From contig NZ_JAHCDD010000003.1 of NCBI RefSeq assembly GCF_018413525.1, positions 1-64,000 of the forward strand: a stretch of DNA of 64,000 nucleotides, written 5' to 3'. Shown here piece by piece: positions 46,817-64,000 of this stretch. Every line of letters begins with the position of its first letter. Positions within the stretch are counted from its first letter, which is position 1. The position numbers and the translations under genes are program-made. The notes below the pieces were generated by a model, which saw only the letters and a list, made by a program, of their open reading frames with translations, did no database searches and was not told the origin of the DNA. Source of the stretch: Acidovorax sp. CCYZU-2555. GTDB taxonomy: Bacteria > Pseudomonadota > Gammaproteobacteria > Burkholderiales > Burkholderiaceae_C.

Positions 46817-49513
<2,697 letters not shown>

Positions 49514-49585
49514 GGTAGTGCCGGGATAACGTCAGAAGTGCAAAGGGTGCCAAGACAGTGAAATTGCTGGCACATCGGACAAATA

Positions 49586-49617
49586 AAGAGCTCGGATGGT
49601 TCCGGGCTCTTTTTTTA
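49586..49617 (+). terminator. terminator of gyrB
   Basis: AGAGCTCGG-ATGGTT-CCGGGCTCT (one T-G wobble) followed by seven T's. The accessory island begins immediately after. Confidence 0.85.
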
Positions 49618-49884
49618 TCCACGCTGATTGGAAATCATGACTGCTGTGCAGCGGGAGCAGTCGATCGCAACCAAATTACGGACGACGGGTTTGGAGGGTA
49701 AAGCAGTTCGTCTGCGACGAGCCTGCCGAGTCCTTTTGGCCAAGTGCACCGTGCTCTGATCGGGCTCTCCGGAGCCGCTCAACGGCTCTACGACCAGCGT
49801 CAGAGAAGCGTTGAGGGTTGTTGCCAAAGAGAGGTGGTAGGTGAGGGCACTAGAGTACCTCTCAACGCGTTGTGCAGAGCGTCC
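49618..49884. other. non-coding tail of the accessory operon
   Basis: Between the gyrB terminator and the stop of the nuclease gene there is no gene I can support. An open 70-codon minus-strand frame (49615-49827) lacks a ribosome-binding site and any recognisable motif. A one-mismatch DnaA box (TTATCCACG) is at 49615-49623. The composition already looks like the island rather than gyrB. Confidence 0.4.
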
Positions 49885-50946
49885 TTAACTGTGCAGGCCC
49901 AGGATTGCTTCCGCGACGCGTCGGGCTCCTGCGATGGGGTTGTTCAAGCTGATCGTCGCGGGAAGTTCCACGCGGAAGGTGAGCGACTGGACGTTTACAT
50001 GCTGGTGGGCGACCACGTCATCGTGCCGCAGCACTTCGACGGCCGGGTCTGCCATGTCGTAACCCCGGACGAAGGTCACGCTAAACGGGGTCGCGAACGG
50101 AGCCTCGTTGGCCATCGTGGCATGCTCGTATCCAATACCCGACTCCGAGCCGTACATGGCTACGCGTTTAAGAAACTCGCCGACCAAGCCGCTAGCTCCG
50201 CTCGCGGTGAGTCGCGCCACGATGCTCTCCACCAGGGATGGGATCGACGAGGCAGGCACGTTGGGATCTGCCTGTCGCAGACCAATGCTTACGAGGAGCA
50301 GGCGCGATTCCCCGGGGCCGTCATCAGTGGCAGCGGCAGGCTCGATCTGGTGCACACCATGGACGGCGTGACTTGAGGTAGTGCGAGTTGTGGTCTTTAT
50401 TTCGACGCCAGTGCCCTGCCACGTGAAATCCCTAGCGGATCGGCGCCAGCCATCCCAAGCCTGGACGAGCGGCGCTATGTGGACATCGTCTGCGCGGCGG
50501 CACAGAGCGTCGAGAAGGAGCAACTCCCCAACAAGTCCGAGGATGGCGTTCTCGGAGATCTCCAGACGCTTGATGGCGAGTTCGATCAAAGGCTCAGTGA
50601 CGACGAATGCGCGCTCCAGATTTGCGTCAGCTTTCTCACGCAGTAATTCAGCGGCAATGAATGCACAGACCTGGTCGAAGTGTCCCAGAGCGGGTAAGAG
50701 AATTCGGTTCGCGCTCAGCGGCGGCTGGGTGTCACGGTGCCACGAGTGGTAGTGAATCGCAGACTTCACTGTGCTGGTCTGGGGCTTCAACTGGTCGCCT
50801 GCAAGGAACAGCTCCAAGTGCCCACGATTGCTCCGGGCGAGACCGACCACCTGTGCTTCGGTCAACCAGGTTATGGTTCGGTCATCTTCCGTGATACCCG
50901 CAGGGATGGCGTTGATCTGGTTGAGAACTTCTTCGTAGCTTGTCAT
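49885..50946 (-). CDS. DUF4420 PD-(D/E)XK motif protein, nuclease component of the Dcm/DUF262/Z1 system
   Basis: A 353-residue protein with a PD-(D/E)XK core in the middle: helix GLVGELLLLDALC (acidic Glu about 141), then ARDFTW (Asp about 173) and VEIKTTTR (E182-x-K184), the catalytic triad layout. This wording (GLxGELxLL, GxxxDFxxxxxxxEIKTT) is that of DUF4420, annotated as PD-(D/E)XK motif protein. It should cut DNA; the site and whether Z1 directs it are unknown. Its start overlaps the Z1 stop (ATGA), making it last in the operon. GC content is lower than the flanks. Confidence 0.87.
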   Translation of the reverse strand: MTSYEEVLNQINAIPAGITEDDRTITWLTEAQVVGLARSNRGHLELFLAGDQLKPQTSTVKSAIHYHSWHRDTQPPLSANRILLPALGHFDQVCAFIAAELLREKADANLERAFVVTEPLIELAIKRLEISENAILGLVGELLLLDALCRRADDVHIAPLVQAWDGWRRSARDFTWQGTGVEIKTTTRTTSSHAVHGVHQIEPAAATDDGPGESRLLLVSIGLRQADPNVPASSIPSLVESIVARLTASGASGLVGEFLKRVAMYGSESGIGYEHATMANEAPFATPFSVTFVRGYDMADPAVEVLRHDDVVAHQHVNVQSLTFRVELPATISLNNPIAGARRVAEAILGLHS

Positions 50947-53750
50947 GGAGAGCTCCTCGTGACGCTGGCCACTCCAGCACGGGTAGCGGAGAACTGCTCC
51001 GGACCTCCCGCAGGGAAGCAGACTCCAACTGCGACCGTGGGGTGCTGGTCATCCGGATGTTGATTGACGTAGAAGAGGATTTGACCGTCGGAGCCGCTGG
51101 GTCGCCACCCCGTGTGGTTGCTCGACGGCACGTCAGCGTGACGGTGGTAGTAGTCGAAGTAGACGTCGCCGCGATACTGGCCCGGGCCGGCGTTGGGGTC
51201 GCTCGCCCCCCAAGTCGTCTTGAGTTCGCCTCCGATCACCCTCTTGGTGGTGGCGCGTATGTTAAATGGGAGCAGTGCCAGCGAACCTTTGGACACGGTG
51301 GCACCATCTCCATAACGAATGCCGATCCAGAACCGCGGTCGCTCAACGTTCTTGCGCCTGAGGTCGGCGTAGGACCATAGATCGCCGGGGTGGCCGGTGA
51401 CAAAAAGGCCTGTGATAGGCCGAGTGAGGCTAGCCGACCAGAGTCGAAGGTAGGCGGCGATGCCATAAGGGCAGGCACGCCGGGGCTGGTCTCCCTCACC
51501 ATGCCTCACCGGCGGGTGGTAGAAAGGTGAATCCAGCAGTGGGGCAACAGCGTTTGCTCGGGCTTCGATACCGCTCCAGAAGTCCGCGTGGAACCCCTCG
51601 CTTCCCGGCCGGTAGTCGGCGAAAGAGAGGCGATCCAAGAGCTCGGCGGCATCGGTAAGTTCGAGTGGAACGTCTAGGATCCGGCCTCGCAGCACGTTGG
51701 CGACAGTGAGATCGCTGGACGGTCGGGCGAAGAGTTCCGCTACTAAATCGGCATTGGGATCCGGCTGTTGGCTGTCATTGATAACTGTTACGAAAGGGCG
51801 AGCCCCTGGAGACAGGGGACGGTTACCGACGCCCGCGATTTTTCCAGTGGCCTCGAAGTTGAAGCCCTGCAGGACGGCGGGTTCAGGGGCACCGCTCATC
51901 ATGCGCTCGGTGATGGCGGTGCGAACCGCTTCGTCGACGTCGTGATAAGTACGGAAGAGGGAGAGTTGGTCGCTGGAGGCGAAGACGCGGCACAGTTCGA
52001 TATAGGATCCGCGATACCCGAACCAGCGCTGCATCTGCATCTGAGTGTCGGCCAGTGGGTTGGCAGAAGAACGCTGGAACAACGCCGTGGTCATCCCTTC
52101 CAGCGTCAGTCCACGGGCCATTACGTTACCTGAGACGAAGATCGTGCTGATGTCGCGGGCGGCGCTCCACTTACCGGTTTCCGGGTCCTGGCTCGGCGCG
52201 TAGGCAGGACGGTCATCAGCGTTGGGGTCGCTATTGACCACGGCGACCCTGGTCCCCGGGATCACCTCGTCGATGAGCAGGGTTTCGATGGTCTGCCAGT
52301 CCGGGAAAACCGTCGGTGGCAGGACATCGAACTCGTCCTCGATTGCTCTGGCGGAGGCACGGTACTTGTCGAGCCATTGCGCCCATGGGGCTGGATCCGC
52401 CTGCAACTGGTCCACCAATGCCTGGGAAAGCCTAGCATCTCCCGCGTCGAGCATATCTCGAGCTGTCGCTCGATCCTGAATTCCCGCCCAGATCAGGACA
52501 TCCTCAGCACCACGGAAATGGTGCTGGATTACCGCAGAAGGGTGATACAGCATCGAGTGCGGCGAAGCCACACTGGCAAAGGCTTCGTCTTTGGTGTCGA
52601 ACTGCTTTGTGATCGCGGACGCTGGGCCGAGCCTGCCAGAGCGGTGCAGGCGGATGGCACCCGCTACCAGGAAAGCCCGGACGGCGTCGGCGAGGTCCTG
52701 TTGCACGGAGTTGGTGGTGGGCACGCACAGTTTGGCTGCCTCCGCGCGACGGTAGAAGACCTCACCGCCGGTATAGTAAGAACGGATCCCTGCCGCCTCG
52801 GGGTAGGTCGATGAGCGTGGGGCGTTGAGGTTGCCAGGGGCGCTTGTGTCTACTGGATGGCCGACGTCGAGCGGCGTGCGAAGAGAAAACAGGAAGTCTC
52901 GCGGCGCCAGGGGGTTGTGGCCCTCCTGAAGAAGGTTGGCTTGGGGTGTCGCTGTGTAGGCGATGTAGGTCGAGAACAGGTTGTCAGGGGAGCCTTGTGG
53001 CGGGTCCCAAAGGTTGGCAATTGCACGTGGGAGTTGCTTAAGGTTGCCATAAACCGGATCCTCGGAGACCTCGACAACCGCATCGAGGATCGAGCCATCA
53101 TCAGCTTCGTCGTCGAGCACAAGCATATGCACGGGACGGTCTAGTTCGCTTGCCGCTCCAAAGATGTTTTTTCGCAGGCTTTCTCCAAGTGCCCGCAAGT
53201 GGTGCGTCTGCTTCATGGCGACCAAAACGATGGGGCGCCTCTGCGAAAGTCGCAGTTTTACGGTGGCTGGAACGAGGCCATAGATACGGTCCAAGGGTAC
53301 GTTCGTCTCGGAGAGCGCGAGGGTCGCTGCGGGACAGATAATGCGCCTCGCCCGCTTCGTAGCATCGTCCAGTCCAGAGTCGAGTTGCTCTAGCACCCGG
53401 CCGTAGGTTTGTCGCCAGAGTGAAAGCCGAGTGCCTGCGAGCACGACTACGATGTCGACGCCTCGATCCATTGCCAGCGCAGAAGTGCCGAGCATCGAAG
53501 CCGTCTTGCCAGACTGGACTGAGCCCATGACCAGGCCCGTACGTGACCGACTTGCAGGCCAAGTCTGGGGGCTTGGCTCACCTGCCCCAAAGATGCCGCG
53601 TTCAAGAATGTAACGGCTGTCAGCCTCGACCGCCGCCCGGGCAGTAGAGCTCAAGCCTTGTAACTGATTGGCGTAGCGAGACCACCACGAATCGGTCGCC
53701 GACGCGGGAGGGTAGAAGTAGACGTGTTCGGTCAACGGCAATGCAACCAC
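50943..53750 (-). CDS. Z1-domain SF2 helicase/ATPase
   Basis: About 935 residues. Walker A GSVQSGKTASM lies near residue 76, Walker B/DEAD-like MLVLDDEADDGS near 213, and the Z1-type late motifs are ISTIFVSGNVMARGLTLEGM and TQMQMQRWFGYRG. It is an endonuclease-associated SF2 helicase (Z1 family) seen in Dcm-linked defence loci. I prefer the GTG at 53750 just after the DUF262 stop; an in-frame ATG at 53852 would give a 102-bp overlap with DUF262. It presumably translocates on DNA for the nuclease. Confidence 0.9.
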   Translation of the reverse strand: MVALPLTEHVYFYPPASATDSWWSRYANQLQGLSSTARAAVEADSRYILERGIFGAGEPSPQTWPASRSRTGLVMGSVQSGKTASMLGTSALAMDRGVDIVVVLAGTRLSLWRQTYGRVLEQLDSGLDDATKRARRIICPAATLALSETNVPLDRIYGLVPATVKLRLSQRRPIVLVAMKQTHHLRALGESLRKNIFGAASELDRPVHMLVLDDEADDGSILDAVVEVSEDPVYGNLKQLPRAIANLWDPPQGSPDNLFSTYIAYTATPQANLLQEGHNPLAPRDFLFSLRTPLDVGHPVDTSAPGNLNAPRSSTYPEAAGIRSYYTGGEVFYRRAEAAKLCVPTTNSVQQDLADAVRAFLVAGAIRLHRSGRLGPASAITKQFDTKDEAFASVASPHSMLYHPSAVIQHHFRGAEDVLIWAGIQDRATARDMLDAGDARLSQALVDQLQADPAPWAQWLDKYRASARAIEDEFDVLPPTVFPDWQTIETLLIDEVIPGTRVAVVNSDPNADDRPAYAPSQDPETGKWSAARDISTIFVSGNVMARGLTLEGMTTALFQRSSANPLADTQMQMQRWFGYRGSYIELCRVFASSDQLSLFRTYHDVDEAVRTAITERMMSGAPEPAVLQGFNFEATGKIAGVGNRPLSPGARPFVTVINDSQQPDPNADLVAELFARPSSDLTVANVLRGRILDVPLELTDAAELLDRLSFADYRPGSEGFHADFWSGIEARANAVAPLLDSPFYHPPVRHGEGDQPRRACPYGIAAYLRLWSASLTRPITGLFVTGHPGDLWSYADLRRKNVERPRFWIGIRYGDGATVSKGSLALLPFNIRATTKRVIGGELKTTWGASDPNAGPGQYRGDVYFDYYHRHADVPSSNHTGWRPSGSDGQILFYVNQHPDDQHPTVAVGVCFPAGGPEQFSATRAGVASVTRSSP

Positions 53751-53754
53751 GGGC

Positions 53755-55656
53755 CTAACGTCCCTCTTCAGAAAGAATTGTGCCCATAAGAGACTCGTAG
53801 CCCGACGAGCCGAAGCGATCGCGGACAGCTTTAGAAGCCTCGCTCGGATCAAGCTTCAGAAGCGTAAGCACGCCCTTGGCAATTCGAGCAATGTAGTCCC
53901 ACTGAGTCTTGGTCTGCGCGTTTTCGATCCGCCCCCAAGCGTCACTGCTCGTTGCGATCAAGATTTCGTTTGCGTTCTGATCGATCCGTTTCTCGACATC
54001 ATTAGGGGACGCCGCGAGGGCGAACGCCACGCCGACCATGGAGCCGACGAGTTGAAGCTCTTGCCACTTGGCCCCCTTACCGCCGTCCATGAACTTCTCC
54101 GACCAGATCTCCGGGTGCCGAGCGTGGAGATCGAAGGCTTCGGTCAGCCATTTGAACAGGTCAGTAAGGTTCTTTCTGCTACGCAGCGGATCCTGTTTGT
54201 CGTCCTGAACCCTGGTCAAGAATTCGTCGATGTGCCGAGCGGTACTCTTGACCTTTTGGACCTTGGTGTCTAGCAGCAACACCGACAGGATCCAAGAGAG
54301 GATCTTGGTGCGGCGGTATCTGGCGCGCCCGATACCGTAGCCTTCGAAGGACGCCCCGATAGTTGTGAGCTTGGGAACCTTGGCCAACGATGGGGCAATG
54401 TCCGCCGCGTCAACGCGCGGGTCTGCATCGCCTGCCGCTACCAAGATCGCCGCGGTAAGTTCAATCTCGTGGAAGGCGGCGTTGCGAATCTCCTCGGCAT
54501 TCAGGTGGACGCCTTGCTTGTTGTATAGCTTGAAAACGTCGTGGATCTGGCGCGGATCAGCCTGCGTGTAGCGGATCACCGGCACTTTGTAGGCGGTAGT
54601 CTTGGTGAACAGCTTTTCCACCGTCATCTCAGCACCTGCAACCTTGATGACATTTTTGAGGATCTGCGTGTAGTACTTGCCCTGTAGCGCCTCCAGGGCA
54701 GGGCCCTTTAGTCCACCACTATCGTTGTTACGTAACTTGAAGGGAAAAAAGTAGTCATTCTCTTTCTCAACCGTCAGGCTCTCTCGCTCCAGCGATTTCC
54801 ACGCTGTCTTGAACTTCAGATAGTCCTCCTTAAAGTTCTTTAGCAGGTCTTGACCGGGATGACGTGAGTCTGCCGCCTGCACCCTTGCTAGAGCCGCTGG
54901 ATGGCTGCCAACAAAGCGCAACAGCGCGGTTAGGCGCTGCTTGCCATCGACCACCTCTTGGGGATCGGACGGCCCGACCTCGCGCAAAATGATTGAGGGG
55001 AGCGGAATGCCTCTGAGCACCGATTCGATGAGAGCCTGCCGGTCGTTCGTAGTCCACACGTCGCCACGCTGGTAGGATGGCGTCAGGTTTAGATCCGACG
55101 TGGTGAGTTCGTTAATGGAGATTACATCGGCCGTTGCGGTGACAGGCTCCGTGCTGAGTTGGTCGGATACCGGTTCAGATTCCTCCCAGGCGCTCGCCCA
55201 ATTACTCGTGGCAGAGGAGCGCGTTACTCCGTCGGACTCCCTCTCCTCTGCGAACGCCTTCTGCAGGCGCACCGCCAACTCAATGCGCTGGCTGAGGCGC
55301 TCCAGGGCGAGCGGCGTAAATTGGCTCGGGGACACCGAGGTATCAAGAGCCTCAGCGCTGTCAAGTTCGAGTCCGGAAACAAGCTTCGCAAGAAACGCAT
55401 CGCGTCCATCATCGGTGAGCCCCTGAGGGAGGCCGAGATTGAGCCAATCCTGAACTTGGGCGAACTGTTGCATCCACGCGTCAGACGTCATGTCAACGTC
55501 GTCGCTTTGGATAGAGGAGGACGCTGCCCTGACTCCAGTTGGAGTGTCAGTTGCATCGGACAGAGTAGCAATCGCGTTGGCAATACTTTCCCACAGCGGA
55601 GTGCGCGGGTCTTCTTCGCCAAAGTCGTCGTCTTCGTGTTCGATGCCGTCGATCAT
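53755..55656 (-). CDS. DUF262 domain protein with N-terminal extension
   Basis: A 633-residue protein. Residues about 180-400 form a DUF262 domain: TPSYQRGDVW (QR motif, about 193-201), VVDGKQRLTALL (DGxQR motif, about 237-241) and FKLYNKQGVHLNAEEIRNA. DUF262 folds like ParB/Srx and is found in GmrS-type modified-DNA restriction enzymes, where it binds NTP and drives cleavage. The first 180 residues are acidic and unlike the domain, possibly an interaction arm; the C-terminal 230 residues are helical. ATGA overlaps the methyltransferase stop. Confidence 0.88.
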   Translation of the reverse strand: MIDGIEHEDDDFGEEDPRTPLWESIANAIATLSDATDTPTGVRAASSSIQSDDVDMTSDAWMQQFAQVQDWLNLGLPQGLTDDGRDAFLAKLVSGLELDSAEALDTSVSPSQFTPLALERLSQRIELAVRLQKAFAEERESDGVTRSSATSNWASAWEESEPVSDQLSTEPVTATADVISINELTTSDLNLTPSYQRGDVWTTNDRQALIESVLRGIPLPSIILREVGPSDPQEVVDGKQRLTALLRFVGSHPAALARVQAADSRHPGQDLLKNFKEDYLKFKTAWKSLERESLTVEKENDYFFPFKLRNNDSGGLKGPALEALQGKYYTQILKNVIKVAGAEMTVEKLFTKTTAYKVPVIRYTQADPRQIHDVFKLYNKQGVHLNAEEIRNAAFHEIELTAAILVAAGDADPRVDAADIAPSLAKVPKLTTIGASFEGYGIGRARYRRTKILSWILSVLLLDTKVQKVKSTARHIDEFLTRVQDDKQDPLRSRKNLTDLFKWLTEAFDLHARHPEIWSEKFMDGGKGAKWQELQLVGSMVGVAFALAASPNDVEKRIDQNANEILIATSSDAWGRIENAQTKTQWDYIARIAKGVLTLLKLDPSEASKAVRDRFGSSGYESLMGTILSEEGR

Positions 55657-57041
55657 GTAGTAGCTTTCAACAGTTTAGGGGCAGAGGTGTCGCTCAAGGT
55701 GGATCGGATGAACCTGTACAACAATCGTTCGGCGATCGCTTTGACGACGCGGGCGTTGACTGCGTTGCCCAGGGCCTTATACGCGTCGAGGTCGGACGCG
55801 GGCAACTGGATGCCGCCGAGACACTGAAGTTCAGCGCACTCGGCTGGAGTCATGTAGCGACGTTCACCGGTCAGGTTAGCACCGAGGATGGGCACTTGGG
55901 TCTGCGTGAAGGCTATGAGGCTTGGGGAGGTCGTGGGACGCTTAACCCGCAGCCCAGACGCACGGACCTGCAGCACGAAGTTGTCGATGTCGCGCTCTTC
56001 ACCCTGTGCGTTCCACTCCATCTTCTGGAAGCTGGAGGGGAAATCTTGGGGGCGCCACCTTGCAAGCCAGGGATCAATCCAGGAGCGGTTGGCTTGGTAG
56101 AACTCACGGTTCTGCCTGATGAAAGTCCGCTTCCACTGTGGAAAATCGAAGTCGCCTGCACGGTTGGAATGGCTCGGTATCCTCGTGATTTGTTCGTCGA
56201 CCGTGCCCTCGAGGGATTGGCCGAAGCTACCCTTGAAGCCCATCTGGCAAAGACCCAACAAAGGTCTGCGAGCCCAAATCCCTGGCGGAGTTTCGTCCTC
56301 GTAGGGGTAGGTCGCACCAAACTCCATCGCCCAGATTGGGAAGGAAGGCAGCTTCAACTCAGCCGGAGAGTGGCGAAGGAAGTCTCCCCACATGTCGATG
56401 GCTCGCAGCGTCTGTTCCGGGATGGCGCGGGTGGAAGGTACGTCGTGACGCAGTACACAGTGGATTTCGGTGGGATCCTTGTGCTTCGCCGGCCACTCGA
56501 AATGATCGAGCCCCTCGAGCGAACCCACGAAGTAGGCGCGGTCCCGCACCTGCGGAATGCCGAAATCGTGGGGAGAGAAGTGCTCGACGTCGACGGAGTA
56601 GCCAAGCTCTTCCAGCATGCGGATGATCGTGGCCTTGGTGCGGCCACCGTCGTGCTTGAGGATATTGGGCACGTTCTCCAAGATGAAGTGTCGCGGCCGC
56701 TTGACACGTAGGATCTCGTGAACCTTGAAGAAGAGATTGCCTTGGTTGGTGTCCTTGAAGCCCAGTTGATCTCCTGCTTTGGAGAACGGTTGGCACGGAA
56801 AACCAGCGGTAAGGACGTGGTGATCGGGCAGGTTACGGGCGATGATCTCGTCGCTGCTGAGGTCGTTAAGGTCACCCCAAGCGTCGATACCGAAGTTGAC
56901 CTTGTAGAGGGCCTTCAGCTTGGGCTCCCGCTCAGCAGCGAACACGCCACGTCCACCCAACTCATTGAGGGCGACGTGGAAGCCACCCAGTCCAGCGAAG
57001 AGGTCGACAAAACGGAAGGCCTCACTAATAGTTCCTATCAC
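55653..57041 (-). CDS. DNA (cytosine-5-)-methyltransferase, modification component
   Basis: A 462-residue C5-MTase with motifs in order: I FVDLFAGLGGFHVAL (about 11-25), IV GFPCQPFSKAGDQLG with catalytic Cys 83, VI ENVPNILKH, VIII PQVRDRAYFVG, a target-recognition region of about 180 residues, IX/X EYGALGNAV-type YKALGNAVNARVV. It should methylate cytosine in a fixed sequence, protecting host DNA. The start is GTG 57041 with AGGA 5 bp upstream. It opens the operon; the stop overlaps DUF262. The target sequence cannot be predicted. Confidence 0.95.
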   Translation of the reverse strand: MIGTISEAFRFVDLFAGLGGFHVALNELGGRGVFAAEREPKLKALYKVNFGIDAWGDLNDLSSDEIIARNLPDHHVLTAGFPCQPFSKAGDQLGFKDTNQGNLFFKVHEILRVKRPRHFILENVPNILKHDGGRTKATIIRMLEELGYSVDVEHFSPHDFGIPQVRDRAYFVGSLEGLDHFEWPAKHKDPTEIHCVLRHDVPSTRAIPEQTLRAIDMWGDFLRHSPAELKLPSFPIWAMEFGATYPYEDETPPGIWARRPLLGLCQMGFKGSFGQSLEGTVDEQITRIPSHSNRAGDFDFPQWKRTFIRQNREFYQANRSWIDPWLARWRPQDFPSSFQKMEWNAQGEERDIDNFVLQVRASGLRVKRPTTSPSLIAFTQTQVPILGANLTGERRYMTPAECAELQCLGGIQLPASDLDAYKALGNAVNARVVKAIAERLLYRFIRSTLSDTSAPKLLKATT

Positions 57042-57057
57042 TTCGGTCCTGTCTGTA

Positions 57058-57075
57058 TCCGCCAGATCGGGCGGA
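57058..57075. promoter_or_regulatory. inverted repeat before the methyltransferase gene
   Basis: TCCGCC-AGATCG-GGCGGA is a perfect 6-bp inverted repeat 17 bp upstream of the methyltransferase start. It may be an operator, or a leader hairpin limiting translation. No regulator gene of the C-protein type is in the operon. The rest of the 57042-57209 gap shows nothing further. Confidence 0.45.
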
Positions 57076-57209
57076 CTTTCTCATGGTTTGTTTAAAAGCT
57101 CGCATTGTGTCACTTCTTGCTGTGCGTGGAATCAAAGGGCCACAATGGCCACCTTAGTGAAAAGCCGCTGTACGGCTATAGAGCGGCTGCACTGGACTGG
57201 CGGCTCTCA

Positions 57210-57540
57210 GCCGAGGCCGTGTGGAAACGCATTTTTGCTGAGTTAGCTCTTACCACGCCAATACCCAGTCTTTGAACGGTGTCGCCTTAGTCTTGAATGT
57301 GACGGCACTCAAAGCGTTTGGAAGCCAATTTGTGCCGCTTTGCAGCTAAAAAATGAGCCACAAAGGCTTACGCCGGCATAGATCGCACCGCTTGCAGCAA
57401 GTTTTTCGTTCCCAAGATGCGTATCACACGTTTGAAGTTATAGGCCAGCACATGCAGGCTCATTTCAGTACCCACATGGGCCAATGTCTCGGACTTCCTC
57501 GATTTCACGAACAGCAACAAGTTGGTAATTTCAGCTGTAT
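57210..57540 (-). pseudogene. IS5-family transposase, C-terminal fragment
   Basis: A minus-strand frame ending at 57368 contains KSRKSETLAHVGTEMSLHVL and AYNFKRVIRILG, the usual C-terminal end of IS5-type (DDE) transposases. Beyond the stop the sequence includes a GGCCTCGGC-TGAGAGCC type terminus and the CGTTTCCACAC block I associate with IS5-family ends. The middle of the protein is missing. Confidence 0.6.
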
Positions 57541-57551
57541 GGAGGATCGAG

Positions 57552-57850
57552 ATGCAAGATAGCAAACTGCCCAGAAGGCAGTACACGGATGAATTCAAAG
57601 TTGAGGCGGCCAGGCTAGCCAACTCGATTGGAGGCCGTGAAGCATTGTCGCTTGGGCGCTCCGGTGGCTACCTTGGGCAACTGAAAGCGACGCGCAGTCG
57701 CTATAGGAACCGGAGTATCTGAAGTCGCTTCGGCTCTGGGGCAGTGCCTGTATGCCGTCCTGTGAGCGAGCTTGAGGCTGATAACAGTCGGCTGCGCCGG
57801 CTGGTGGCAGATGCGAAACAGAACTTAGAAATATTGCGAAAAGGAACCGC
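57552..57850 (+). pseudogene. IS3-family orfA (HTH) transposase relic
   Basis: MQDSKLPRRQYTDEFKVEAA begins at 57552 after GGAGG and reads as the HTH of IS3/IS911-type OrfA. A frame change at about 57720 precedes VSELEADNSRLRRLVADAKQ, the coiled-coil end of the same ORF, then KGTAYSKSL. Two frames are needed, so it is broken. It splits the IS5-type frame: the relic is nested. Confidence 0.65.
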
Positions 57851-58110
57851 CTACAGTAAGTCGTTGACCAACGCCAGGATCTGTAGGGCCAGCTTGTGCT
57901 CTTCCACCAGCCGACGAAACCGAAGAATCGTCGTTTCGTCGGGAGCGGAGGTATTCCAGTTCAGTCCTTCAAACTCTCGGAACAGCAGCACATCGTGCAG
58001 CACCTCTTCCATTGCCGGATTGCTCAGCGTAAAACATTGCTGGATGAAATGCACCCGCAGCATGATCTCCACGGGTAACCAAACGCTGCGAGGCTGGATT
58101 AAATGCGCGG
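57851..58110 (-). pseudogene. IS5-family transposase, N-terminal fragment
   Basis: The minus frame MEIMLRVHFIQQCFTLSNPAMEEVLHDVLLF to DETTILRFRRLVEEHKLALQ matches the DUF772 N-terminus of IS5 transposases. It continues neither to the catalytic DDE region nor beyond 57851. The remaining gap to lldD (58110-58280) has no gene. Confidence 0.65.
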
Positions 58111-58280
58111 AAGTCGACGCCGGTGCACGTTAATGCATCACAACCAGCGAAAGCCCAACGTCAGGTAATGGCGGAAGCGCTCGTCGGTCCGCCAAGATTG
58201 GATGTCGGCAATTAGCCTGAAACGGCCGCTTTCCGATATGTAGAGCCTTCTGCCGCACCAACCGCGCAGACGCCGCACCA

Positions 58281-62727: not shown

Positions 62728-64000
62728 TCAGTCGGGCAGCTGCAGCCGCCCCGAGAACGGCGGCGAATTGCCCTGCGCATTTTGATGAGGCAGTTGCCAG
62801 TCGGGCCAGCGCGGGCGTTCGGTGGTGATTCGGCCTTCACGCAACAGATCGCCTGTCAGGCGGTTTTCCTCGGCGGTGAAAGTATTTTTCCAGACTACGG
62901 TGCCCTGGTCCTGCCATTGGCCCTGCGCATCGCGCGCGCTGAGGCGGCAGCGGCGGTTGCCGCGGTCTTCGAGACTGCACAGCAGGTGATCGGTCTGCTG
63001 GTCCTGGTCCCAGTCGCCAGACAGCAGCACGCAGTCGGCGCCGGACAACAGACATCCCAGGGCCCAGGGTTCTTCCTGCGTCTGCAGTTGCCACCAGTCC
63101 CACCAATCCGGCTGCGGTCGCGCCATGCCCGCGGGGGTCTTGATGCGCTGCTGGGCCGCGGCCAGGTCGAAATTCTCACGGGGTTCCGAGGCTGTGGAGG
63201 GACGCGTGCGCGTGGAAGCGCGCGCCACCTCGAGCCGCTGGCGTGCCTCGCCAGCCTGGAAGCCGGGGTCGCTGGCCAGCGCGTCAAGCGCGGCAAGGCC
63301 GTAGGGGCCGTGGCCCCACTTCAGATCGGTCAGGCGCTCCAGGCTGGCCTGCGACGGGTCGGCACGCAGGCGCTCGCGTTGGCTGCCGGCGCTGATGCGC
63401 TGGCCGTCGAGCAAAGGCGTCTGCAGCGCCAGCAGCAAGGCCAGCACCAGCAGCGACAGCGCCTGGTTGACGGGCGCGAGCCACTGCAGCCAGGGGCGCG
63501 CAGCGCCCTGGCGCACGCTGTGCACGGCGGCGCAGGCATAGCCCAGCGCATAGAGCCACAGCACGCCCGCGGCAGCCGCGGCCCAGACGCGCTCCAGCGT
63601 CCAGCCGTACTGCCGCACGCGCAGGCCTATGGCCACGCAGGCCAGGGTGGCGAGCACGGGCATGGCGATCAGGCTGGCATCGACCAGCCAGCGCAGCACG
63701 CGTGGATACGGCGCCCGGGCTGCCGCGCCGTCCTGGTAGACCGCATTCACGACCCAGGTCTGCAAGATCAGTACGCCCATCAGCAGTGCGGCGGCAAAGC
63801 GCGTAGCCCACAGGCCTTCGACGCCCGTGAACACCAGCGCCAGAACGAAGAACACCAGCACCCAGGCCAGCAGCGGCAGCAGCAGGCGCCCCAGCGCGAG
63901 CAGCGTCTGGCGCATCACCTGTATGGGCCGCTGCTGCGTGCGCGCCAGCCACAGGCCCAGGCCCGAAAGAAGGCCGGTCACCACGAACACGAACCACTGC
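62728..64000 (-). CDS. DUF4153 membrane protein (partial, N-terminus outside window)
   Basis: At least 423 residues, running off the right edge. It has multiple hydrophobic segments and the DUF4153 pattern TPLLDGQRISAGSQRERL near residue 200 of the visible part, followed by a charged soluble C-terminal region with WWDWWQ, ALGCLLSGADCVLLSGDWDQD and RRCRLSARDAQGQW. It is an inner-membrane protein of unknown function. The stop faces the convergent cupin gene 40 bp away. Confidence 0.8.
   Translation of the reverse strand, partial: QWFVFVVTGLLSGLGLWLARTQQRPIQVMRQTLLALGRLLLPLLAWVLVFFVLALVFTGVEGLWATRFAAALLMGVLILQTWVVNAVYQDGAAARAPYPRVLRWLVDASLIAMPVLATLACVAIGLRVRQYGWTLERVWAAAAAGVLWLYALGYACAAVHSVRQGAARPWLQWLAPVNQALSLLVLALLLALQTPLLDGQRISAGSQRERLRADPSQASLERLTDLKWGHGPYGLAALDALASDPGFQAGEARQRLEVARASTRTRPSTASEPRENFDLAAAQQRIKTPAGMARPQPDWWDWWQLQTQEEPWALGCLLSGADCVLLSGDWDQDQQTDHLLCSLEDRGNRRCRLSARDAQGQWQDQGTVVWKNTFTAEENRLTGDLLREGRITTERPRWPDWQLPHQNAQGNSPPFSGRLQLPD

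What the first reader, a model, noticed from the sequence alone, without database searches (positions are those of the whole stretch)
49885..57041. Four-gene Dcm / DUF262 / Z1 helicase / DUF4420 nuclease operon
Seen: four minus-strand genes, two junctions with ATGA overlaps and one with a gap of a few bases, carrying intact C5-methyltransferase motifs (Cys 83), DUF262 QR and DGxQR motifs, Walker A/B of a Z1 SF2 helicase and a D-x8-E-x-K nuclease site. Known: Z1 helicases occur with Dcm methylases, PD-(D/E)XK proteins and GHKL/MORC-type ATPases. Inferred: here DUF262, a fold used by GmrS-type modification-dependent enzymes, takes the GHKL place, giving a distinct restriction or phage-exclusion system. 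I do not know a named system with exactly this set.
Basis: partly seen in the sequence, partly recalled or inferred. Interest (0 to 1): 0.8.

Follow-up and report, generated by a model that had tools for sequence, protein, structure and literature searches.

The report
Four-gene methylase-helicase-nuclease defence-like operon
A compact set of four genes, kept together in widely separated bacteria, looks like an uncatalogued DNA-marking-and-cutting system in which a known switch protein has been replaced by an unrelated one.

Summary
In detail: four intact minus-strand genes (Dcm, DUF262, Z1 helicase, DUF4420 nuclease; 57041-49885) with two ATGA overlaps and one 4-base gap. It is not chance. 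A genome scan gave 78 related Z1 loci in at least five phyla: DUF262 lies directly upstream of Z1 in 75, DUF4420 directly downstream in 76, a Dcm in the locus in 74; contig ends and one truncated locus account for the misses. DUF262 and the N-terminal part of Z1 appear to be exchanged together between otherwise similar operons, which suggests that they touch. Best explanation: an ATP-dependent 5-methylcytosine restriction-modification system, with DUF262 as NTPase switch, Z1 as motor and DUF4420 as cutter. None of this activity has been shown. No PADLOC or NCBIfam entry seen and no paper found names the set. It is a new variant of the MORC/MZA-Z1 kind of restriction system.

The parts
55653..57041 (-). 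C5-cytosine DNA methyltransferase (Dcm family), 462 aa, GTG start
   Evidence: PF00145 E 7.1e-59, TIGR00675 above cut-off; PCQ and ENV in 73 of 73 related Dcms, QxRxR in 71 of 73, a GN[AS][VI] pattern in 51 of 73; best-matched solved family M.HhaI
53755..55656 (-). DUF262 (GmrS-type) protein, 633 aa: helical N-terminal part about 1-165, ParB/Srx-like NTPase core about 168-385, helical C-terminal part; no DUF1524/HNH match
   Evidence: PF03235 only; QR, DGxQR and FxxxN residues invariant in 50 of 50; AlphaFold2 pLDDT 88.3; VIA best matches BrxU Z 8.1, SspE Z 8.0, ParB/Noc about 6, DndI 5.3, sulfiredoxin 5.0
50943..53750 (-). Z1-type SF2 helicase-like ATPase, 935 aa, GTG start
   Evidence: PF10593 E 1.8e-27; MzaC-like 113 bits, below the 1500-bit cut-off; helicase motifs in 75 of 75 (acidic box 74)
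49885..50946 (-). DUF4420 PD-(D/E)XK nuclease, 353 aa: N-terminal domain about 1-116, nuclease domain about 130-350
   Evidence: PF14390 E 6.8e-17; E141, D173, E182, K184, Q200 invariant in 49 of 49; AlphaFold2 pLDDT 92.5; VIA best matches DpnI Z 6.2 and SfiI Z 5.5, next row 4.2
49641..57212 (-). conserved 7,572-bp unit with sharp ends, found at several different chromosomal sites; no transposase or integrase gene inside
   Evidence: homology to L010, L013 and L096 ends at both 49641 and 57212, to L014 and L019 at 57212 and within 2 bp of 49641; flanks differ between window, L010, L013, L014 and L019, but L013 and L096 share one site; other relatives end further in
53000..55650 (-). exchangeable cassette: nearly all of DUF262 plus the Z1 N-terminal part, ending somewhere between Z1 residues about 205 and 265 (Walker A inside; the acidic box, residues 213-218, at the edge)
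   Evidence: DNA identity to C. testosteroni L013 falls from 85-91% to 49-73% within this stretch and is 89-93% in the two bins covering 52650-52949, with an intermediate bin (75%) between; to Pusillimonas L010 it stays 79-94%; protein identities; tree tests

Best explanation
A mobile, four-protein, ATP-dependent restriction-modification system. Dcm puts 5-methylcytosine on the host's copies of its target (inferred from intact motifs). The other three proteins form the restriction core (inferred): Z1 is the ATP-driven motor, as in CglI/NgoAVII; DUF4420 is the PD-(D/E)XK cutter; DUF262 binds and hydrolyses an NTP and acts as the licence switch that couples the methylation state of the DNA to motor and nuclease, in the slot that a MutL/MORC-like GHKL ATPase fills in related operons. 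Shown here by sequence: conserved gene set and order, intact active sites, the GHKL/DUF262 slot swap, sharing of one Dcm subfamily by both kinds of core, and joint exchange of DUF262 with the N-terminal part of Z1. Inferred: physical contact, NTP hydrolysis, methylation, cleavage, phage restriction.
For: Co-conservation in 75, 76 and 74 of 78 loci over Pseudomonadota, Actinomycetota, Myxococcota, Chloroflexota and Planctomycetota. Catalytic motifs kept. Same order with GHKL in DUF262's place. Dcms of GHKL-type L102, L148, L150 nest among Dcms of DUF262 loci; L148 and L150 are 71-72% identical to DUF262-type Dcms while the Z1s compared are 30-33%. DUF262 and the Z1 N-part move together: three type A and six type B loci share 53-57% in DUF262 and 62-66% in Z1 residues about 2-201 but 82-90% in Z1 residues about 246-926; A+B as one clade is rejected for DUF262 (AU p 6e-5) but present in the trees of the Z1 C-part (support 97), DUF4420 (93) and Dcm (99). 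A Vsr-like gene lies within 6 kb in 24 of 79 loci (one representative confirmed), as expected beside active 5mC methylation. Fold: DUF262 best matches BrxU/SspE, DUF4420 best matches DpnI/SfiI. CglI precedent: Z1 ATPase, nuclease and C5 methylase, cleavage needing ATP hydrolysis (PMC4267653, passages).
Against: No activity was measured and phage resistance is not shown for any locus. Fold matches are middling (Z 5.5-8.1), and Foldseek alone found nothing at E <= 0.001. The Z1 N-part AU test is only borderline (p 0.053), the DUF262 rejection rests on the Actinomycetota locus L033 siding with type B, the deeper place of type A is unsupported (5), and the groups were named after seeing identities. 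No Vsr in the window's genome. The DUF262 system is rare: Z1 relatives in 3 of 399 family genomes including the window's, DUF262 relatives in 1 of 369 class genomes, the window's own. Some loci carry a Dcm of a more distant subfamily (L068, L085). Which protein reads the DNA sequence is unknown.
Confidence: 0.62

Rival explanations
1. Ssp-like logic: the 5mC made by Dcm is not a shield but the signal. DUF262 senses the methylated self motif, hydrolyses NTP and licenses the Z1-DUF4420 core to attack DNA that lacks or disturbs the pattern.
For: DUF262 model's best fold matches are BrxU and SspE. In SspE, recognition of phosphorothioate triggers GTP hydrolysis that licenses the nuclease (PMC13251355 abstract). 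A review reports BrxU acting on 5mC, 5hmC and glc-5hmC DNA and Dazbog's DUF262 as a likely reader of methylated DNA (PMC10952713 passages).
Against: The N-proteins of the Z1 precedents CglI/NgoAVII respond to non-methylated sites (passages). GHKL cores use Dcms of the same subfamily without any DUF262 in the cluster, so 5mC reading by DUF262 cannot be the only logic for that subfamily. The part of DUF262 that might read DNA was not identified.
Confidence: 0.2
2. Abortive infection: the methylase keeps the three-gene core silent, and phage interference with methylation or with the NTP pool releases DUF4420 on host DNA.
For: Other DUF262 proteins are described as NTPases that regulate a nuclease (passages); MZA-like relatives carry AIPR, a family named for abortive infection.
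Against: The homemade AIPR profile found 0 of 79 DUF262 loci. A methylase in nearly every locus fits ordinary protection as well.
Confidence: 0.12
3. A decayed or domesticated gene cluster with a housekeeping role, for example repair near the origin, as it lies beside gyrB.
For: In this genome it sits directly after gyrB.
Against: All four frames and the active-site motifs are intact. Relatives lie at other sites with sharp ends. G770 has no such operon at the gyrB-lldD site. The distribution is patchy.
Confidence: 0.03

Closest known systems
MORC/paraMORC - Z1 helicase - RE-fold nuclease - Dcm operons (Iyer et al. 2008, PMC2292703; introduction parts 1 and 2 of 4 read) and the putative defence system of PMC9523054 (sections 10 and 11 read)
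   Same: Z1 helicase, PD-(D/E)XK protein, C5 methylase, often Vsr; operon logic; in L102, L148 and L150 the same order
   Different: The ATPase slot holds a GHKL protein there and DUF262 here; Z1s of DUF262 loci form one side of a branch (29 of 29 sampled, SH-aLRT 100), partly by construction because they were found by likeness to the window's Z1
MZA anti-phage system (MzaB GHKL ATPase, MzaC Z1, MzaD PD-(D/E)XK, AIPR)
   Same: Z1 and DUF4420 proteins match MzaC (E 9e-33) and MzaD (E 2e-5)
   Different: Scores far below the curated cut-offs (113 of 1500 bits, 24 of 420 bits); DUF262 instead of the GHKL ATPase, no AIPR (0 of 79 loci)
CglI / NgoAVII / BceSIV restriction-modification systems (PMC4267653, passages)
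   Same: C5 methylase plus SF2-Z1 ATPase plus separate nuclease
   Different: Their nuclease is a PLD-fold protein with a B3 domain, and the passages describe no DUF262 protein; a locus that looks of that kind (L151) turned up in the census
GmrSD, BrxU, SspE, DndI, Menshen, Dazbog, PD-T4-2 (DUF262 proteins; PMC4619093, PMC10952713, passages; DndI)
   Same: DUF262 family and QR, DGxQR, FxxxN residues; model matches BrxU, SspE and DndI; PADLOC matches include NsnA (E 7.6e-24, a name I could not trace) and PD-T4-2_A (E 2.7e-16)
   Different: No DUF1524/HNH domain by Pfam; cutting is left to a separate DUF4420 protein; works with a Z1 motor and a methylase

Membership tests
MZA system | MzaC-equivalent Z1 protein (NCBIfam NF041933 cut-off 1500 bits) | tested here: not met
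   113 bits
MZA system | MzaD-equivalent PD-(D/E)XK protein (NF041934 cut-off 420 bits) | tested here: not met
   24 bits
MZA system | GHKL/MutL-like ATPase MzaB | tested here: not met
   Slot holds DUF262; the homemade GHKL profile (E <= 1e-5) hits 2 of 79 loci, both as neighbours on the other strand
MZA system | AIPR protein | tested here: not met
   Homemade AIPR profile: 0 of 79 loci
CglI/NgoAVII type | C5 methylase with a Z1-type ATPase | tested here: met
CglI/NgoAVII type | PLD-fold nuclease with B3 domain | tested here: not met
   The nuclease gene is PF14390 DUF4420; no other Pfam domain in the four genes at E 0.1
GmrSD type IV enzymes | DUF262 domain with DGQQR-like motif | tested here: met
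   PF03235 above cut-off; DGxQR in 50 of 50
GmrSD type IV enzymes | DUF1524/HNH nuclease domain | tested here: not met
   No such Pfam match in the window protein nor in three divergent relatives
GmrSD type IV enzymes | Cleaves DNA only when modified | not testable with these tools
   Needs biochemistry
Dcm - ATPase - Z1 - RE-fold nuclease operon class (third type of Iyer et al.) | Z1 helicase, RE-fold nuclease and Dcm in one operon | tested here: met
Dcm - ATPase - Z1 - RE-fold nuclease operon class (third type of Iyer et al.) | GHKL-fold ATPase in the second position | tested here: not met
   DUF262 instead; position equivalent by order
Active restriction-modification system | Methylation and restriction in cells | not testable with these tools
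   Needs methylome and phage challenge

The most novel reading that the evidence does not exclude
The methylase is the shared specificity factor of a modular immune platform: one Dcm subfamily directs either of two interchangeable motor-nuclease cores, one gated by a GHKL clamp and one by a DUF262 NTPase that senses the 5mC state. The cassette of DUF262 plus the first part of Z1 is swapped as a unit to escape phage countermeasures. Restriction specificity would then lie in the methylase, as with PglX of BREX (recalled), rather than in the nuclease.
Probability: 0.22. Interest if true: 0.82.

Novelty: new variant of a known kind. Interest (0 to 1): 0.6.

Why it matters
It shows two unrelated nucleotide-driven switches, a MutL/MORC-like GHKL ATPase and a ParB/Srx-fold DUF262 protein, filling the same place in one operon plan with the same methylase subfamily. 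That makes a testable comparison: what must the switch do for a Z1 motor and a PD-(D/E)XK nuclease? It also gives MORC biology a natural replacement experiment, and adds an uncatalogued candidate system to defence-model sets. The joint exchange of DUF262 with one part of Z1 names the interface to look at first.

Tried and rejected
Chance co-occurrence: rejected. Phage or prophage origin: viral contigs with the Z1 protein and with an alignment gave no relative; phage records held only 24-28% identical Z1 pieces in 6 records. Solved structures by sequence profile: none for Z1, DUF262 (E <= 0.1) or DUF4420 (E <= 1). Foldseek alone: nothing at E <= 0.001 for either model. VIA rows below the top ones (chaperones, Arp2/3, phosphodiesterases, designed helical proteins) were taken as common arrangements; the DUF262 part before residue 165 had only such rows and counts as untested, not as a new fold.

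Transposon ends: no inverted match over 8 bp between the ends in one local alignment, and no target duplication seen by eye. Plasmids gave no match for the downstream end and only 31-40-base matches for the upstream end, in 9 records; similar short matches in family genomes look like an insertion-sequence end.

Does a core segment track the Dcm recognition region (residues 191-360, my choice)? Windows of Z1 scored highest (partial correlation up to 0.48, label-shuffle 95% level 0.18; 68 of 79 loci with four full-length genes), DUF262 61-120 among the lowest; relatedness is not controlled, so I draw no conclusion.

Weak points of the counts: gene profiles were built from and iterated on the loci they were used on; the genome scan found only loci matching one of two peptide patterns and kept the best 80 of 82. 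The trees used 29 of 79 DUF262 loci, picked by hand, and 31 others for Z1; plasmid locus L100 was not put in. The Z1 tree is a quick one with long branches. Eight plasmid loci other than Neorhizobium were looked up out of 32 records with Z1 matches, not at random; 5 of 8 have GHKL before Z1. Identity types A and B were defined on 3 and 6 loci and 3 and 9 loci.
Full report
Observation. The four genes are real and intact. Gene order in the direction of transcription is Dcm (57041-55653), DUF262 (55656-53755), Z1 (53750-50943), DUF4420 (50946-49885), with ATGA overlaps at the first and third junctions and a 4-base gap before Z1. The window is G000:C75 of a 5.76-Mb genome. The genus is most likely Comamonas: G809, of the same genus, has a 31,111-base contig, the length of the C. 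testosteroni SWCO2 contig that carries the operon.

Recurrence. A scan of genome contigs with a four-row Z1 alignment kept the best 80 of 82 relatives, 78 distinct loci. With homemade profiles, DUF262 lies directly before Z1 in 75 of 78; the misses are two contig ends (L012, L063) and one truncated locus (L051). DUF4420 lies directly after Z1 in 76 of 78, the two misses being contig ends (L020, L025). A Dcm is in the locus in 74 of 78: 52 upstream on the same strand (51 by the script plus L022, which it misfiled), 11 downstream and 8 upstream on the other strand, 3 downstream on the same strand. It is missing in L012, L063, L051 and L039, whose contig is short. Two of these Dcms (L068, L085) are of a more distant subfamily. 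A Neorhizobium plasmid has the set too, in the same order, with dcm and Z1 each in two ORFs. In Rubrivivax albus Dcm has moved to the end (L008/L076). The system is rare: DUF262 protein at E <= 1e-20 in 1 of 369 class genomes, the window's own; Z1 at E <= 1e-30 in 3 of 399 family genomes including the window's, all three with the full set.

The GHKL slot. Eight plasmid Z1 loci besides Neorhizobium were looked at. Five have an 'ATP-binding protein' before Z1, and all five match PF13589 HATPase_c_3; of the three given to NCBIfam, two match MzaB below its cut-off and L102 does not match. The Rathayibacter plasmid L102 reads dcm - GHKL - Z1 - PD-(D/E)XK. To avoid picking, Z1 (PF10593) was sought in 398 genomes of the phylum: 26 match and 25 are over the cut-off. 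I took stretches around the 24 others and the one below cut-off and profiled them. The window is the only DUF262 locus. Nineteen have a GHKL gene in the cluster: L130-L143, L146, L147, L148, L150, L153; in L147 the order is GHKL - nuclease - Z1, and L131 has only a 149-aa GHKL ORF. L144 and L145 have Z1 and nuclease but neither ATPase. L149 is cut by the contig end, L151 looks of CglI type (Dcm, a protein that I read as PLD-like from memory of the motif, Z1), and L152 is a remnant. L148 and L150 have the window's order with GHKL in second place.

Shared methylase, separate cores. In a quick tree of 60 Z1 proteins all 29 sampled from DUF262 loci form one side of a branch (SH-aLRT 100), partly by construction, as the loci were found by likeness to the window's Z1. 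In a tree of 51 Dcms the DUF262 loci do not group: GHKL-type L102, L148 and L150 sit inside, and L068 outside (5 label changes, 0% of 200 bootstrap trees with one). Dcm of L086 (DUF262 core) and L150 (GHKL core) are 72% identical while their Z1s are 30%; L148 against L059 gives 71% and 33%; L102 against the window gives 57% and 31%. The Sphingomonas locus L072 has a Dcm-GHKL pair back to back with a DUF262 core, with no second Z1 in the stretch held. So methylase and core look like exchangeable modules, and the two kinds of core like functional equivalents. That is inference from gene order and trees.

DUF262 moves with the first part of Z1. The window, L009 and L010 (type A) and L011, L013-L019, L031 (type B) are alike in Dcm (83-90% to the window), Z1 C-part and DUF4420 (78-90%), while type B DUF262 is 53-54% to the window. 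In the matrix of 3 type A and 6 type B loci, DUF262 is 53-57% across types, Z1 residues about 2-201 are 62-66%, Z1 residues about 246-926 are 82-90%. Along the DNA the fall begins at the start of DUF262 (about 55650) and ends about 53000, somewhere between Z1 residues 205 and 265; Walker A is inside, the acidic box at the edge. With 18 loci, the DUF262 and Z1 N-part trees put the three type A loci in one group with support 100. Holding types A and B together is rejected for DUF262 (AU p 6e-5) and borderline for the Z1 N-part (p 0.053). The trees of Z1 C-part (97), DUF4420 (93) and Dcm (99) show A+B as one clade in which the three type A loci are not one group. The rejection rests on the Propionibacteriaceae locus L033, whose DUF262 sides with type B; the deeper place of type A has support 5 only, and the groups were chosen after seeing the identities. 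The plain reading is that DUF262 and the first part of Z1 fit each other and are replaced together.

Active sites and folds. The DUF4420 model (pLDDT 92.5) is best matched over residues 130-353 by the restriction enzymes DpnI (Z 6.2, 138 aligned, 5.7 A) and SfiI (Z 5.5, 126 aligned, 4.6 A), with the next row at 4.2. The DUF262 model (pLDDT 88.3) is best matched by BrxU (Z 8.1), SspE (8.0; 7drr 175 aligned at 4.2 A over 168-381), then ParB/Noc (about 6), DndI (5.3) and sulfiredoxin (5.0). These Z values are middling; Foldseek alone was negative. Unlike BrxU and SspE, this DUF262 protein has no DUF1524 match, so cutting is presumably left to DUF4420.

Mobility. Homology to copies at other sites ends sharply at or within 2 bp of 49641 and at 57212 in five flank contexts: window, L010, L013 (shared with L096), L014, L019. 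In C. testosteroni SWCO2 and G767 the unit does not lie beside gyrB. In G770 the gyrB-lldD gap holds a 606-aa gene, and in G801 that gene plus about 5.4 kb of other genes. No mobility gene was seen inside the unit, and how it moves is unknown.

Mechanism. Best reading: Dcm marks the host, Z1 is the motor, DUF4420 the cutter, DUF262 the NTP-driven licence. CglI and NgoAVII show that a Z1 ATPase and a nuclease work together, with ATPase activity on DNA with non-methylated sites and cleavage needing hydrolysis (PMC4267653, passages). SspE shows a DUF262-family protein that senses a DNA mark, hydrolyses GTP and licenses a nuclease (PMC13251355, abstract; DUF262 assignment from PMC10952713, passages). 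Whether the present DUF262 is triggered by absence or presence of 5mC is open; the shared use of one Dcm subfamily by GHKL cores favours ordinary protection. The Vsr-like neighbour in 24 of 79 loci fits active 5mC methylation, though the window's genome has no Vsr.

Known or not. The PADLOC-DB 2.0.0 and NCBIfam 20.0 scans gave only single-protein matches (MzaC, MzaD, NsnA, PD-T4-2_A, methylase models; only the general dcm model passes its NCBIfam cut-off) and no entry for the set; PADLOC prints no cut-off, and its system rules were not run. Paper searches gave no paper naming DUF262 with Z1 and DUF4420; one search listed 29 papers since 2019 with DUF262 or DUF4420, none with both by its counts. 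Iyer et al. 2008 (PMC2292703, introduction parts 1-2 of 4) describe the GHKL version. PMC5379612 (passages) notes a Corynebacterium diphtheriae island with a Z1 helicase, an EcoRII-like enzyme, a Dcm-HTH fusion and DUF4420, without DUF262 in the passage. PMC9523054 (sections 10 and 11) describes a Z1/PD-(D/E)XK/C5-methylase core whose Type I has three further genes not named in its text. The library lacks most subscription papers; the MZA source paper was not held. Verdict: new variant of a known kind.

Noticed in passing
window 49513-58280 and 62743-64000: The operon occupies the gyrB-lldD junction. In G770 this gap holds a 606-aa membrane-protein-like gene; in the window that gene's homologue lies beyond lctP at 62743-64000, and G801 has another insert of about 5.4 kb of metabolic genes there. 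The site looks rearranged more than once.
   Followed up: partly
window 57117-57212 and L010:5527-5640: The upstream end of the conserved unit has a hairpin followed by T's in several relatives and, beside it, a stretch of about 25-30 bases (TGACCCTGCCTCGTTTCC...) that recurs at insertion-sequence-like ends in related genomes.
   Followed up: partly
24 of 79 loci, e.g. L046:6117-6542: A Vsr-like mismatch-endonuclease gene is a frequent neighbour of the system, mostly in Actinomycetota; only the representative was checked against Pfam.
   Followed up: partly
L072:4146-12800: Sphingomonas MAG with a Dcm-GHKL pair divergent from a DUF262-Z1-DUF4420 core: a composite of the two kinds.
   Followed up: partly
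L051: Aquamicrobium locus keeps only the C-terminal part of Z1 and DUF4420; Dcm, DUF262 and the Z1 N-part were not found, a remnant.
   Followed up: no
window 57368-58150: Short ORFs between the unit and lldD, one of them tested without Pfam match, perhaps insertion-sequence debris.
   Followed up: no
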